This document shows, one piece after another, positions 3,673 through 49,206 of a stretch of DNA of 64,000 nucleotides. The notes under the pieces are model-generated. The model searched no databases. It was not told the origin of the DNA and worked only from the letters and a program-made list of their open reading frames with translations. The DNA comes from Halorussus sp. MSC15.2 (GTDB taxonomy: Archaea > Halobacteriota > Halobacteria > Halobacteriales > Haladaptataceae). Made by a program: the position numbers and the translations under genes. Position 1 is the stretch's first letter, and every line of letters begins with the position of its first letter. The stretch is from the NCBI RefSeq assembly GCF_010747475.1, contig NZ_VSLZ01000001.1:1116001-1180000 (forward strand), written 5' to 3'.

Positions 3673-5007
3673 ATGTCGGAACGAGAAACATGGACGAGTA
3701 GAATTGGATTTATCTTCGCCGCCGTCGGGAGCGCGGTGGGACTCGGGAACATCTGGTCGTTCCCGTTCCAGACCGCGGCGAACGGCGGTGCCGCGTTCCT
3801 CGTGGTCTACCTGTTGGCCGTGTTCCTCATCGGCTTCCCGACCATGATGGTCGAGTTCGTCATCGGTCGGCGCGGCGAGCGCAACCCCGTCGCCGCGTTC
3901 GAGAAAATCGGCTACGGGAACTGGTCGTTCGCCGGCGGACTCGGCGTGTTCTCCTCGCTGGTGACGCTGTCGTTCTACAGCGTCGTCGGCGGGTGGGTCC
4001 TCAGTTACATCGTCGGTAGCGCCACCGGCGCGTACTTCGGCGACGCGGGAGCGTACTTCGGGTCCATCGCCTCCGGTCCCACCGCCATCGCCGCGCACGC
4101 GGTGTTCATGCTCATCACCATCGGCATCGTCGCGTCGGGCGTCACCGACGGTATCGAGCGCGCCACGACGTTCATGATTCCCGCGATTCTGGTCCTCCTC
4201 GTCGGACTCGCCGCTTGGGCGACGACGCTCGAAGGGGCCACGGCGGGGTACGCGTTCTACCTCTCGCCGGACTTCGGCGTCATCGCGGACAACTTCTGGT
4301 CCATCGTCCCGCCCGCCATGGGGCAGGCGTTCTTCACGCTCTCGCTCGGATTCAGCGTGATGATAGCCTACTCCTCGTACCTCGGCCGCGACGATAGCCT
4401 CCCGGCCGACGGCGGTGCCATCGTCGTCGTCAACACGTTCGTGGCGCTCCTCGCCGGGTTCGTCGTCTTCCCCATCCTGTTCGCCACGGGCGGCGCGGGC
4501 GGTGCGGGCGGCGGTGCCGGGACGGCGTTCGTCGCCCTCGCGGGTGCGTTCGGTAACCTCCCCGCGGGCGGTATCATCGGCTTCGTCTTCTTCGCCGTGC
4601 TGCTGTTCGCGGCGCTCTCCAGTTCCATCAGCCTGCTGGAAGTGCCGGTGTCGTACATCTCCGAGAACTACGGGTACAGTCGGGCCACCACCGCGGTGGC
4701 GATGGGCGCGACCATCGCTCTCGTCGGCGTCCCCGCGACGTTCGGCACGTCGTGGCTCGGATTCTACAACGACGTGGTGTTCAAGTTCCTCCTCCCCGTC
4801 GCCGTCCTCCTGCTCGCCGTCTTCGTCGGTTGGGTCGCCGACACGGAAGCGGTGGACGAACTGGGTCGAGGCTCCACGTTCGGCGAGTCGTTCACCACGG
4901 CGTGGCTCTGGTGGGTCCGCGTCGTCGTCCCATTCGCCGTCATCGTGACCCTCTACCTCGGCATCACGGCCCTCTACGAGGGTATCACCACGGGAGCCTA
5001 CTTCTAG
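3673..5007 (+). CDS. sodium-dependent transporter, neurotransmitter:sodium symporter (NSS/SNF) family
   Basis: A 444-residue polytopic membrane protein. Its first membrane helix carries the NSS signature AAVGSAVGLGNIWSFPF, where the unwound helix binds sodium and substrate in LeuT-type transporters. Other family segments are GGAAFLVVYL, EFVIGRRGERNP, LSFYSVVGGWVL, TLSLGFSVMIAYSSYLG and the Ser-rich ALSSSISLLEVPVSY. Bacterial members (LeuT, MhsT) import amino acids with sodium; the substrate here is unknown. It is followed after 291 bases by a clear paralogue, so the pair arose by duplication. A glycine-rich loop (GGAGGAGGGAGTAF) precedes helix 8. Confidence 0.92.
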   Translation: MSERETWTSRIGFIFAAVGSAVGLGNIWSFPFQTAANGGAAFLVVYLLAVFLIGFPTMMVEFVIGRRGERNPVAAFEKIGYGNWSFAGGLGVFSSLVTLSFYSVVGGWVLSYIVGSATGAYFGDAGAYFGSIASGPTAIAAHAVFMLITIGIVASGVTDGIERATTFMIPAILVLLVGLAAWATTLEGATAGYAFYLSPDFGVIADNFWSIVPPAMGQAFFTLSLGFSVMIAYSSYLGRDDSLPADGGAIVVVNTFVALLAGFVVFPILFATGGAGGAGGGAGTAFVALAGAFGNLPAGGIIGFVFFAVLLFAALSSSISLLEVPVSYISENYGYSRATTAVAMGATIALVGVPATFGTSWLGFYNDVVFKFLLPVAVLLLAVFVGWVADTEAVDELGRGSTFGESFTTAWLWWVRVVVPFAVIVTLYLGITALYEGITTGAYF

Positions 5008-5298
5008 GGCCGACGCGCCTCGGCTCTCGAACGCGGCGTCATTCCCCGAACTCGACTATTTTCGCGGCGCTCGCCGATTCGACTCGACTACCGATGGCTC
5101 TCCGCGAGTTCTGGTTACGAATCGTAGATTAAAAGCCGAGTATCGGCGTCGGAATCTATACTTCTTCAGATGGACTCCAGTTTGTCGCCCACTCGATTAC
5201 AGAGAACTACCGAATTACGCCGGAAAGAGCATCATATTTCCGAATTAACGGTTCGTAACTCGAAACCCTCTTATGGCCGTGTGGGCGAGTGTGTCGCA
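5008..5298. other. intergenic region between the two NSS genes, with two promoter-like elements
   Basis: Contains TACGAATCGTA (5116-5126), an 11-base inverted repeat, followed at once by an AT-rich ATTAAAAG (5128-5135), and 120 bases later a second motif/TATA pair (5250-5275). No separate gene was seen. The frame upstream of 5299 is open back to 5170, but I do not regard it as coding. Confidence 0.5.
5250..5275 (+). promoter_or_regulatory. operator-like motif plus TATA-like box of second NSS transporter
   Basis: GGTTCGTAAC (5250-5259) is the reverse complement of GGTTACGAAC before the first NSS gene. A TATA-like CTTATG (5270-5275) lies 26 bases before the ATG at 5299, as in leaderless haloarchaeal promoters. 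This supports ATG 5299 over the upstream in-frame ATG at 5170. Confidence 0.5.
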
Positions 5299-6639
5299 AT
5301 GACACGCGAATCGTGGCGCACGCGACTCGGCTTCATCCTCGCCGCAGTCGGCAGCGCCGTCGGCTTAGGTAACGTCTGGCGGTTTCCGTGGATGACCGCA
5401 GAGAACGGCGGAAGCGCGTTTCTGGTGGTGTACCTCGCGATTATCCTGCTGGTCGGCGTCCCCGGCCTGCTCGCGGAGTTCGTCATCGGGCGGCGCTCCC
5501 AGCGCAACCCAGCGGGCGCGCTCTACAGGCTCTCTTCGGGGTCGAAGTCGTGGGGCGCGGTCGGTCTCTTCGGCGTCGTGACCGCGGTCGTCCTGCTGTC
5601 GTTCTACAGCGTCGTCGGCGGGTGGATTCTCCGATACTTCCTCGCCAGTTTCACCGGCGCGTACTTCGGGTCGCCCGGCCAGTACTTCGGGGCCATCGAC
5701 TTCGGTCTCCCGGCGGTCGGCTTCCACGTCGGCTTTCTCGCGCTCACGGCGTTAGTCGTGGTCGGGGGTATCCGGGACGGCATCGAGCGAGCGACGAAAG
5801 TCATGATGCCCGCGATAATCGTCCTGCTCGTCGCACTGGCAGGGTGGGCGGTCACTCGACCCGGCGCGGGCGCGGGCCTGTCGTTCTACCTCGACTTCGA
5901 CGGGGCCTACCTCCGAGCCAACTTCTTCGACGTGCTGGGCGCGGCGGCGGGACAGGCGCTGTTCACGCTCTCGCTCGGCGTCGGCACGATGATAACCTAC
6001 GCCTCGTATCTGGGCGACGACCACAACCTCGCGTCCGACGGGAGCCTCATCGCGGTGCTGAACACCGGCGTCGGGGTTCTCGCGGGGTTCGTCGTCTTCC
6101 CGCTCCTGTTCGCGACGGTGGGCGAACTGACTGGTCCGGCCGCGGCGGGCGGCGGTCCCGGCGCGCTGTTCGTGAGTCTCGCCGGTGCGTTCTCCCAACT
6201 CCCCTTCGGCCAACCGCTCGCGGTCGTCTTCTTCGGCGTCATCGTCCTCGCGGCGCTGTCGTCGTCCATCAGCATGCTCGAAATCCCGGTGGCCTACCTC
6301 GTGGACGAGTTCGGACTGGAGCGCCGGACCGCGACCGCCACGCTGACGTGTCTCGTTCTGGTGACCGGGTCGGCCAACGCGCTGAACCCCGGTCTGTTCG
6401 GCTTCGTGGCGGGGACGCTCGTGGACCTGATGCTGACCACGGGTCTCGCGGGGTTCCTCGTGTTCGTCGGGTGGGTCCTCGGCAAGGACGCCGTGACCGA
6501 GTTCTCGTCGGGCGCGGGGTCGCGCGTCCGGTCGCTCGGCCCGGCGTGGCTCTGGTCGGTCAGGACGATTCTGCCGCTGTTCCTGCTCGGCACGCTCGCG
6601 GTGAACCTGCTGGCGCTCGCGGGCGTCTCGCTGTTCTGA
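5299..6639 (+). CDS. sodium-dependent transporter, NSS/SNF family (paralogue of preceding gene)
   Basis: A 446-residue NSS symporter closely related to the upstream gene. Shared segments include AAVGSAVGLGNVWRFPW, EFVIGRRSQRNP, LLSFYSVVGGWIL, FTLSLGVGTMITYASYLG and ALSSSISMLEIPVAYL. Tryptophan replaces serine after the first-helix NVW, and there are differences around the substrate site, so specificity may differ. The frame is open upstream to an ATG at 5170, but those extra 43 residues (basic, no family match) are not membrane-like, and a promoter sits 26 bases before 5299. The start at 5299 is therefore chosen. Confidence 0.92.
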   Translation: MTRESWRTRLGFILAAVGSAVGLGNVWRFPWMTAENGGSAFLVVYLAIILLVGVPGLLAEFVIGRRSQRNPAGALYRLSSGSKSWGAVGLFGVVTAVVLLSFYSVVGGWILRYFLASFTGAYFGSPGQYFGAIDFGLPAVGFHVGFLALTALVVVGGIRDGIERATKVMMPAIIVLLVALAGWAVTRPGAGAGLSFYLDFDGAYLRANFFDVLGAAAGQALFTLSLGVGTMITYASYLGDDHNLASDGSLIAVLNTGVGVLAGFVVFPLLFATVGELTGPAAAGGGPGALFVSLAGAFSQLPFGQPLAVVFFGVIVLAALSSSISMLEIPVAYLVDEFGLERRTATATLTCLVLVTGSANALNPGLFGFVAGTLVDLMLTTGLAGFLVFVGWVLGKDAVTEFSSGAGSRVRSLGPAWLWSVRTILPLFLLGTLAVNLLALAGVSLF

Positions 6640-47731: not shown

Positions 47732-47919
47732 GTCAGTGAGAAATCAGAATTGAAGAACCGCCGCTGTTCAAGAGTCATTTTCTACAGGAATATGATTATA
47801 ATTTGATAGGGTGGTTCCAGACAGACTAAAGATAGTTGGAGTTGAAGAATAAAAATAAAGAAATGAAATATAATATAATGGTGTTTATATAATGGTATTT
47901 GGAGTAGAAAAGAAGAAAA

Positions 47920-47927
47920 TATTTAAA
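47920..47927 (+). promoter_or_regulatory. TATA-like box of the Tat-exported AT-rich gene
   Basis: TATTTAAA lies 20-27 bases before the first ATG (47944). Placing the transcript start about 26 bases downstream of its centre gives about 47950, so translation may begin at the third-downstream in-frame ATG at 47953. Confidence 0.5.
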
Positions 47928-47943
47928 CAGTTGGATTTTATTA

Positions 47944-48753
47944 ATGAGTGCAATGAGAGGAAATCTCAACAGGCGGAATTTCATCCGTGCGACTGGAACT
48001 GGATTAGCATTCGGCGCAACTTCGGGCGTGGTGAGTGCACAGAAATCAAACGGTAACAGTGAATCAAGCAAGACGTCCCCGCTCGTTATTCGAAATGGGA
48101 AGCTTGACCTCTTAGTCAAGGGTCGTAGCGGGAAAACATTGAATCACGAAGACGTTCTTGAACGAGTCAATACAGTGGAATCTGGATTGACTCAGAGTGC
48201 AGTCCAATCACTTAAAAAAGGGGAATCAGTTACTGGCTGGGATGCAGCGGCAATGCTCGCAAGCTCTGTCAAAAAAATAAACAAATTCAAGCAGAAGGGA
48301 TTAGTTAAATTTGGCGGATCAAAAGACAACCCCTCTGTTCTTCCTACTAAAAAATCCCTTGAGGCCTATCGGGAACTGACAACCTCTAATGTCACTACAC
48401 AGGGTTGCGGCGTAACTAAATACAATGTTCGGCAACCTAAGGCGACAGATCCGTACATTAAGGTGTCGCTGTTTACAGACGATCAAGACTCGGAACTCCT
48501 GAAAACACGCCTCAATCAGGGCGCTATCACCGCCGGATTTATCGGTACTCTTGTCGGTACCGGTACCATCGGCGGTGGAGCACCAGTCACGATTTTCTGC
48601 GCTGTTTTAAGTGCTAGTGCAGCAATTTACGCGGCGGAGATTGGTCTTCAGAACAACGGTTGCGGCGTGGAAACAGTTGTAAAGTACCTCCCTGTCCCGG
48701 GAACTCCCCCAGTCCCCAAACTCACATTTGACGTCTATGTGAATTCCCAGTAG
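47944..48753 (+). CDS. Tat-exported protein with bacteriocin-like C-terminal domain, hypothetical
   Basis: 269 residues from ATG 47944 (an in-frame ATG at 47953 fits the promoter spacing better). A Tat leader NRRNFIRATGTGLAFGATSGVVSA is followed by a lysine/serine-rich helical segment (about 45-150). The C-terminal region starts QGCGVTKYNV (Cys155), has a beta-like KVSLFTDDQDSELL, then a glycine-rich hydrophobic stretch AITAGFIGTLVGTGTIGGG to IFCAVLSASAAIYAAEI with Cys219, and ends NNGCGVETVVKY (Cys240). Two G-C-G-V motifs around a hydrophobic core recall bacteriocin-like exported proteins. I do not recognise a named family. Unlike its neighbours it is not acidic and uses AT-rich codons. It could be a halocin-like peptide antibiotic or a surface protein. 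Confidence 0.7.
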   Translation: MSAMRGNLNRRNFIRATGTGLAFGATSGVVSAQKSNGNSESSKTSPLVIRNGKLDLLVKGRSGKTLNHEDVLERVNTVESGLTQSAVQSLKKGESVTGWDAAAMLASSVKKINKFKQKGLVKFGGSKDNPSVLPTKKSLEAYRELTTSNVTTQGCGVTKYNVRQPKATDPYIKVSLFTDDQDSELLKTRLNQGAITAGFIGTLVGTGTIGGGAPVTIFCAVLSASAAIYAAEIGLQNNGCGVETVVKYLPVPGTPPVPKLTFDVYVNSQ

Positions 48754-48770
48754 AGAGCCATCAATAGAAC

Positions 48771-48779
48771 TATATTTTT
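48771..48779 (+). promoter_or_regulatory. TATA-like box of the small membrane gene
   Basis: TATATTTTT is centred 25 bases before the ATG at 48799, matching a leaderless transcript and giving the small gene its own promoter. Confidence 0.5.
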
Positions 48780-48798
48780 GGAAGACACTACGCAAAAT

Positions 48799-48975
48799 AT
48801 GGCCTCAACAGAAAAAACCCTATTTGCAATAGGAGCTCTAATCTGCTTCGGTGGGGTCTTTTACGGCCTCTGGCTATACTACACTATCCCGAGTGTAGGT
48901 TTTAACGATATCGTTGCTTTTCTTTTCCTTGGGTTACTTGGGGCAGTGTGCCTTAAAAGATTTCTTCCTCTCTAA
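48799..48975 (+). CDS. 58-residue two-helix membrane protein (possible immunity protein)
   Basis: MASTEKTLFAIGALICFGGVFYGLWLYYTIPSVGFNDIVAFLFLGLLGAVCLKRFLPL forms two membrane helices with a short polar loop between them. It is 45 bases behind the bacteriocin-like gene, in the same direction, with its own TATA box. Size and topology match immunity proteins of bacteriocins, but no homology is claimed. The ATG at 48799 is preferred to a TTG seven codons upstream, because of the promoter spacing. Confidence 0.6.
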   Translation: MASTEKTLFAIGALICFGGVFYGLWLYYTIPSVGFNDIVAFLFLGLLGAVCLKRFLPL

Positions 48976-49105
48976 GAGGCGTTAATAAAAATATTTGCGT
49001 CAACACTGGGCATGATGGAGTTCTAATTTCGTTTCAAGCGTAATTTACCGTAATTTGTAATGACAGCGATGGCAGTTCGTGTATAATCAACCTACTACGC
49101 AACTC

Positions 49106-49131
49106 AAAACCGAAAGAATCGGAAGAAAGTA
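49106..49131 (-). terminator. hairpin and T-rich tail after tRNA-Glu
   Basis: On the minus strand the tRNA is followed by TACTTTCTT, a CCGA-TTCTT-TCGG hairpin (plus 49110-49122) and GTTTTG. This would end the tRNA transcript. Confidence 0.45.
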
Positions 49132-49206
49132 TGCTCCGTCAGGGATTTGAACCCTGGTCATCGGCTCGAAAGGCCGAAATGATTGGCCGGACTACACCAA
49201 CGGAGC
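49132..49206 (-). tRNA. tRNA-Glu (anticodon UUC)
   Basis: Read on the minus strand, 75 bases: the acceptor stem GCTCCGT pairs with ACGGAGC, the D-arm is TGGTGTAGTCCGGCC, the anticodon stem TCGGC/GCCGA encloses the loop CTTTCGA with anticodon TTC, and the T-arm is CCAGGGTTCAAATCCCTG. The discriminator is A (plus 49132) and CCA is not encoded. The sequence is the typical haloarchaeal tRNA-Glu. Confidence 0.95.

What the first reader, a model, noticed from the sequence alone, without database searches (positions are those of the whole stretch)
47740..49131. AT-rich island at tRNA-Glu carrying a Tat-exported bacteriocin-like protein and a small membrane partner
Composition drops sharply between the DUF58 gene and the 3' end of tRNA-Glu. 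The segment holds only two genes: an exported protein with a bacteriocin-like C-terminal domain, and 45 bases later a 58-residue two-helix protein with its own TATA box. Size, order and topology match a secreted antimicrobial with its immunity protein, delivered by the Tat route as halocins are. Tat export, composition shift and gene order are visible; toxin and immunity roles are inference.
Basis: partly seen in the sequence, partly recalled or inferred. Interest (0 to 1): 0.72.

Follow-up and report, generated by a model that had tools for sequence, protein, structure and literature searches.

The report
Halocin-like exported toxin with membrane partner
A short AT-rich insert next to a transfer-RNA gene in a salt-loving archaeon carries what looks like a secreted antimicrobial protein and a small membrane protein that protects its maker; both belong to a scattered haloarchaeal gene-pair family that the searched public family libraries do not recognise.

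Summary
Between the DUF58 gene and tRNA-Glu(TTC), GC falls from about 0.67 to 0.41-0.49. The segment holds a 269-aa twin-arginine protein and, 45 nt later, a 58-aa two-helix ORF. It is a recent insert: six congeners keep DUF58 and tRNA-Glu only 61-90 bp apart, against 1,400 bp here.

The exported protein has no Pfam or NCBIfam family. It founds a divergent family of 46 further loci in 34 haloarchaeal genomes. All share a C-terminal module: a disulfide-type Cys pair, a predicted four-strand sheet with an inserted hydrophobic helical hairpin, a G[C]G motif and a final Gln.

Nearly every member sits beside a membrane ORF (2, 4 or 6 helices). ORFs with at least 2 helices are about 100-fold enriched within 150 nt downstream. 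Recurrent partner families occur in several orientations; one toxin has three tandem copies. In at least 12 loci the exported gene is broken and the partner intact. This window's own partner survives alone in three other genomes. A halocin C8-like gene elsewhere in this genome has the same layout.

Best reading: Tat-exported, membrane-acting, halocin-like antimicrobial plus immunity protein. Killing and protection are untested. It is not a member of the halocin C8 or geobacillin-26 families; halocin H4 and a 2019 archaeal-toxin survey could not be compared.

The parts
47793..49131 (.). Accessory insert between the ancestral 3' flank of DUF58 and the 3' end of tRNA-Glu (left edge approximate)
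   Evidence: Empty site in G012 (61 bp) and five other congeners; GC 0.41-0.49
47920..47927 (+). TATA-like element of the exported gene
   Evidence: Sequence TATTTAAA 17-24 nt before the ATG; inference
47944..48753 (+). Exported halocin-like protein, 269 aa, intact
47944..48045 (+). Twin-arginine signal region (NRRNFIRATG, residues 1-34)
   Evidence: Sequence; R10 and R11 nearly invariant in alignment A6
48076..48378 (+). N-terminal domain (residues 45-145); model suggests helix-helix-helix-hairpin, possibly winged-helix-like
   Evidence: AlphaFold2 pLDDT mostly 70-87 with a weak stretch at residues 81-100; Foldseek hits weak and not significant
48391..48750 (+). C-terminal effector module (residues 150-269); Cys155/Cys240 predicted disulfide; hydrophobic helical hairpin residues 180-236 in a four-stranded sheet
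   Evidence: 35-sequence alignment A7, pLDDT 78, pTM 0.70; Cys co-occurrence
48771..48779 (+). TATA-like element of the small gene (TATATTTTT), conserved in G002 and G008
48799..48975 (+). Small two-helix membrane protein, 58 aa, predicted immunity protein
   Evidence: Homologues in G002 (73%), G008 (67%), G269 (35%); dN/dS 0.08-0.36
48768..49152 (+). Unit homologous to G002 (75% DNA identity): small gene with promoter, 3' flank and the tRNA-Glu 3' end
   Evidence: blastn alignment
49132..49206 (-). tRNA-Glu(TTC), the insertion landmark

Best explanation
The pair is a haloarchaeal bacteriocin (halocin-like) cassette. The exported protein is made as a precursor, folded in the cytoplasm and exported by the Tat pathway. 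Its C-terminal module, a small sheet locked by one disulfide and holding a glycine-rich hydrophobic helical hairpin, is the effector and probably acts by inserting into or perturbing the membrane of related archaea. The N-domain acts as carrier or intramolecular chaperone. The adjacent small membrane protein sits in the producer's membrane and blocks the hairpin, giving immunity. Shown: export signal, module conservation, family-wide linkage to membrane ORFs, accessory distribution, and purifying selection on module and partner. Inferred: toxicity, membrane target, immunity and processing.
For: Family of 46 loci in 34 genomes with a conserved Tat signal and C-module. ORFs of 50-145 aa with 2 or more helices: 3.1 per kb within 150 nt downstream on the same strand, against 0.00-0.04 per kb beyond 1.2 kb; 21 of 43 non-redundant loci within 250 nt, the rest being 6-helix, divergent, inverted or upstream partners. 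Recurrent partner families by blastp, e.g. one 4-helix family downstream (L046), inverted downstream (L044) and divergent upstream (L052) of related toxins. Three tandem paralogous partners behind one toxin (L127). Broken exported gene with intact partner in at least 12 loci, including a TnpB insertion. Partner kept alone in three genomes with dN/dS 0.08-0.36. Cys pair present or absent together. A halocin C8-domain gene in the same genome has the same AT-rich, Tat, small-membrane-ORF layout.
Against: No activity data. The window's partner has no detectable homologue beside any other member of the toxin family, and occurs alone in three genomes. One locus (L059) has an intact exported gene with its partner cut by an insertion sequence. 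The excess of broken toxins over broken partners (12:1) is not significant if the toxin gene is simply a three-fold larger target (p about 0.13, own calculation). No significant PDB fold match.
Confidence: 0.7

Rival explanations
1. The exported protein is a secreted or surface protein with a non-antagonistic role (adhesion, signalling, envelope), and the membrane protein is its anchor, receptor or export helper.
For: No toxicity data; Tat export and a membrane partner alone do not prove antagonism; the partner sometimes lies at a distance or in another orientation.
Against: Patchy distribution in AT-rich inserts with an empty site, fast divergence (20-35% identity), frequent decay of the exported gene with partner kept, tandem partner copies, partner kept alone.
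Confidence: 0.13
2. For this window only: the 58-aa gene is an independent resident of the tRNA-Glu hotspot and its place behind the exported gene is coincidental.
For: The homologous unit in G002 starts exactly at the small gene's promoter and runs to a tRNA-Glu 3' fragment, without any exported gene; homologues stand alone in G008 and G269.
Against: Family-wide background of such ORFs within 150 nt is about 100-fold lower than observed; the 2-helix size and 45-nt spacing match other members; orphan immunity genes are expected in such systems.
Confidence: 0.12
3. Two-component lytic or pore complex: both products are needed together, the small protein being a second effector subunit, not immunity.
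For: Constant adjacency; two-peptide bacteriocins exist (general knowledge).
Against: Partner types with 2, 4 and 6 helices go with one module family; partner has no export signal and is preserved when the exported gene is dead or absent.
Confidence: 0.03
4. Intracellular toxin-antitoxin stabilisation module of a small mobile element.
For: Small two-gene accessory insert at a tRNA.
Against: The larger protein carries a Tat signal in all intact members; gene order and partner orientation vary.
Confidence: 0.02

Closest known systems
Halocin C8 (ProC8/HalI; NCBIfam TIGR04449 halocin_C8_dom)
   Same: Tat-exported precursor with an N-domain and a C-terminal effector of about 75-120 aa; AT-rich island; in this same genome a TIGR04449 gene also has a small membrane ORF (83 aa) 68 nt downstream (PMC11509114 for ProC8).
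   Different: No TIGR04449 match in the window protein or in any scanned member; two cysteines instead of the many of the C8 domain; predicted strand-hairpin-strand module; immunity seems to be a separate membrane protein rather than the N-terminal half.
Geobacillin-26 family class III bacteriocins (NF035925; alicyclobacillin 24)
   Same: About 24-26 kDa exported proteins with a hydrophobic C-terminal helix and a membrane-associated action (PMC13176240).
   Different: Sec rather than Tat export (PMC13176240); only noise-level matches to the model, similar to control genomes and below cut-off.
Halocin H4 of Haloferax mediterranei
   Same: Haloarchaeal, 30-35 kDa class (PMC11509114); thought to perforate the cell surface (PMC6759562).
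   Different: Sequence could not be retrieved here, so relationship untested.
Circular bacteriocins (plantacyclin B21AG, enterocin NKR-5-3B)
   Same: Weak, non-significant sequence similarity in the hydrophobic helices (E 0.54 and 1.9).
   Different: Not significant; no sign of circularisation or of its enzymes.

Membership tests
Halocin C8 (TIGR04449) | Match to the halocin C8 domain model above its cut-off of 24 bits | tested here: not met
   No hit in the window protein or in the scanned members; the same model finds a true C8 gene elsewhere in this genome at 40.6 bits
Halocin C8 (TIGR04449) | Tat-exported precursor | tested here: met
   RR motif at residues 10-11, conserved in family
Halocin C8 (TIGR04449) | N-terminal half of precursor confers immunity | not testable with these tools
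   Needs expression assay
Geobacillin-26 family (NF035925) | Model match above cut-off of 40 bits | tested here: not met
   Best 13.3 bits in one of 24 members; control genomes also give sub-cut-off hits
Halocins (functional class) | Secreted protein that inhibits other haloarchaea | not testable with these tools
   Export signal present; inhibition not assayed
Bacteriocin plus immunity cassette (functional class) | Effector gene linked to a small membrane immunity gene across relatives | tested here: met
   About 100-fold enrichment, recurrent partner families
Bacteriocin plus immunity cassette (functional class) | Partner gives specific protection | not testable with these tools
   Needs expression assay
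Halocin H4 | Sequence homology to HalH4 | not tested
   halH4 not found in the collections searched
Known protein families (Pfam, NCBIfam) | Match above gathering score | tested here: not met
   None for the window protein or the 24 scanned members
tRNA-integrating element | Integrase gene and direct repeats of the tRNA 3' end flanking the insert | tested here: not met
   No integrase ORF and no tRNA-end repeat at the left edge; a tRNA-Glu 3' fragment borders the homologous unit in G002 only

The most novel reading that the evidence does not exclude
A new family of archaeal antimicrobial proteins in which a disulfide-clasped sheet presents a membrane-inserting helical hairpin, exported already folded by Tat. 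In one subfamily the carrier domain and effector module are separate, translationally coupled chains (TAATG overlap at the domain junction), so the effector, which lacks its own signal, would leave the cell by hitch-hiking on the carrier. Interchangeable 2-, 4- and 6-helix membrane proteins provide immunity.
Probability: 0.35. Interest if true: 0.8.

Novelty: new variant of a known kind. Interest (0 to 1): 0.62.

Why it matters
Few halocins have known genes, and most are hard to find by sequence because their sequences are unknown or too divergent (PMC11509114). This family gives a sequence signature (Tat signal, CG...DD...hairpin...N-x-G-C-G-V...Q) and a linked partner rule that exposes about 46 candidate antimicrobial/immunity pairs in haloarchaea; where annotation was seen, the exported gene is called hypothetical or is not annotated. 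It makes directly testable how haloarchaea protect themselves from their own membrane-active proteins, and whether Tat can carry a signal-less effector as a passenger.

Tried and rejected
Plasmid, phage and IMG/VR searches with the window protein or two subfamily alignments found no viral relative; two plasmid relatives were found with other members. Matches of alignment A1 with E above about 1e-5 cover only the Tat signal and were discarded. L134-L136 are stand-alone hydrophobic hairpins, not members. Geobacillin-26 similarity was followed up and dropped as noise. Fold searches of the full model and of the module gave nothing significant; the hint that the N-domain is winged-helix-like rests on weak hits only. 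Attempts to retrieve halocin H4 failed, and the 2019 mBio survey of archaeal toxins is not held, so prior description of this family there cannot be excluded. Direct-repeat search for attachment sites at the insert's edges found none. Specific homology between the window's partner and partners of the nearest toxins was tested by shuffling and not supported. The split precursors were first taken as pseudogenes and then reclassified, because the TAATG junction is shared by divergent genera.

Full report
WHAT IS THERE. The segment between the DUF58 gene (ends 47731) and tRNA-Glu(TTC) (49132-49206, minus strand) drops to 0.41-0.49 GC against about 0.67 on both sides. It holds two credible genes: a 269-aa protein with a twin-arginine signal (47944-48753) and, 45 nt later, a 58-aa two-helix protein (48799-48975) with its own TATA-like element. 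The genome is a haloarchaeon by its relatives.

IT IS A RECENT INSERT. In the closest congener (DUF58 97% identical) the DUF58 stop and the tRNA are 61 bp apart; six of six congeners that keep the synteny have 61-90 bp, the window has 1,400. The first 50-60 bp after DUF58 are still recognisable in the window, so the insert begins near 47793 and ends at the tRNA 3' end. No integrase and no flanking direct repeat of the tRNA end were found. The exported protein is absent from the other 27 genomes of the family-level group.

THE EXPORTED PROTEIN FOUNDS A FAMILY. It matches no Pfam or NCBIfam model. Single-sequence search of 392 genomes of the order gives 14 genomes with a match, some of them weak. 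A profile gives about 30 members in the same sample, after discarding Tat-only matches. A module-only profile finds members in 24 of 125 genomes of one family and about five of 146 of another. Loci were fetched for 46 members in 34 genomes. A phylum-wide sample added nothing convincing outside the order. Named members include Natronorubrum halalkaliphilum, Natronobiforma cellulositropha and Natrarchaeobius chitinivorans, and plasmids of Natrinema, where the gene is called hypothetical or is unannotated.

ANATOMY OF THE PROTEIN. All intact members have a Tat signal, an N-domain of about 100 residues, and a C-module of 95-120 residues with the pattern C-[GN] ... [FY]-x-x-[DN]-[DN] ... G-rich hydrophobic hairpin ... 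N-x-G-C-G-[VI]-x-[IV] ... Q at or near the end. Of the members, 22 have both Cys1 and Cys2 (the table lists 20, because L046 and L061 were misread by the pattern and were corrected on the alignment). Three lack both. Eight that lack Cys2 have Cys1 plus an alternative Cys in the DHC/DDC position. One (L122) has Cys1 and a Cys in its tail. None has Cys2 without Cys1. This is what a conserved disulfide would give. AlphaFold2 models the module as strand-strand-four helices-strand-strand with pLDDT 78 and pTM 0.70. The full-length model is poorer (66, pTM 0.48). Neither has a significant PDB match.

THE MEMBRANE PARTNER IS A FAMILY TRAIT. Around the members, ORFs of 50-145 aa with at least two hydrophobic helices occur at 3.1 per kb within 150 nt downstream on the same strand, against 0.00-0.04 per kb farther than 1.2 kb. 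Other members have a six-helix protein of about 300 aa, or a small partner upstream, divergent or inverted. Partners fall into recurrent homologous families: a 69-aa two-helix family in six genomes, a 4-helix family in six loci, a 6-helix family in eight loci, and a second 4-helix family that lies in three different orientations beside three related toxins. L127 has three tandem paralogous partners. Both genes show dN/dS of 0.12-0.49 in close pairs.

DECAY PATTERN. In at least 12 loci the exported gene is broken by frameshift, stop, deletion or a TnpB insertion while the partner is intact. In one both are dead (L120). In one the exported gene is intact and the partner is cut by an insertion sequence (L059). 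Because the exported gene is a larger target this asymmetry is only suggestive (p about 0.13 for 12 of 13 if three quarters is expected; own calculation).

THE WINDOW'S OWN PARTNER. Homologues of the 58-aa protein exist in three other genomes (73%, 67% and 35% identity), each without an exported gene nearby; the profile search found no member in two of them (G002, G008) and none was listed for the third. In G002 the homology to the window is 391 bp at 75% and runs from the partner's promoter through its 3' flank into a 22-bp fragment of the tRNA-Glu 3' end. So the partner with its promoter is an inheritable unit tied to tRNA-Glu, found with the exported gene here and alone there. dN/dS between these copies is 0.08-0.36. 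This fits orphan immunity, but it also leaves room for an independent gene, and is the main weakness of the pair-specific claim.

INTERNAL COMPARISON. The same genome carries one halocin C8-domain gene above the TIGR04449 cut-off. It lies in an AT-rich stretch, has a Tat signal in a frame shifted relative to the module, and is followed 68 nt later by an intact 83-aa three-helix ORF. A relative of an experimentally known halocin thus shows the same layout and the same decay pattern.

HOW IT MOST LIKELY WORKS. Shown: export signal, module, linkage, accessory distribution, selection. Inferred: the folded precursor leaves by Tat; the hairpin of the module perturbs the membrane of related archaea; the small membrane protein protects the producer. 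Split precursors (L062, L066, L067, and L063 with an extra stop), where the N-domain ORF ends at a TAATG overlap exactly before the module, suggest that N-domain and module are separable partners.

KNOWN OR NEW. It works like a halocin cassette but fails the sequence test for halocin C8 and for the geobacillin-26 family. Halocin H4 could not be obtained and the main survey of archaeal toxins is not held. From memory, that survey proposed many uncharacterised archaeal families as candidates, so this one may be on its list. I therefore rate it a new variant of a known kind.

Noticed in passing
L062 4342-4686, L066 4339-4656, L067 (oriented 4339-4656), L063 (oriented 4004-4345): Exported precursor split into two ORFs joined by a TAATG stop-start overlap exactly at the N-domain/C-module junction, shared by divergent genera.
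   Followed up: partly
L127 4382-5387: Three tandem paralogous 69-72 aa two-helix genes behind one exported gene, like a stacked immunity cluster.
   Followed up: partly
G000:C4 around 191504-191707 minus strand (L154): Halocin C8-like precursor with its Tat signal frameshifted from the C8 domain, in an AT-rich stretch with an intact 83-aa three-helix ORF 68 nt downstream.
   Followed up: partly
L172 oriented 5334-5355 and 5456-5500: Two successive fragments of a tRNA-Glu 3' end behind the orphan partner in G002, suggesting repeated integration at tRNA-Glu.
   Followed up: no
L132 oriented 3923-4351: Member with Tat signal fused directly to the module, without the N-domain.
   Followed up: no
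L139, L140, L145, L147 downstream of tRNA-Glu: About 1 kb of lower-GC DNA between tRNA-Glu and the 3-hydroxyacyl-CoA dehydrogenase gene in other congeners, so both sides of this tRNA receive inserts.
   Followed up: no
L075 oriented 4352-5563: TnpB-type gene inserted inside the module of an exported gene, partner intact.
   Followed up: partly
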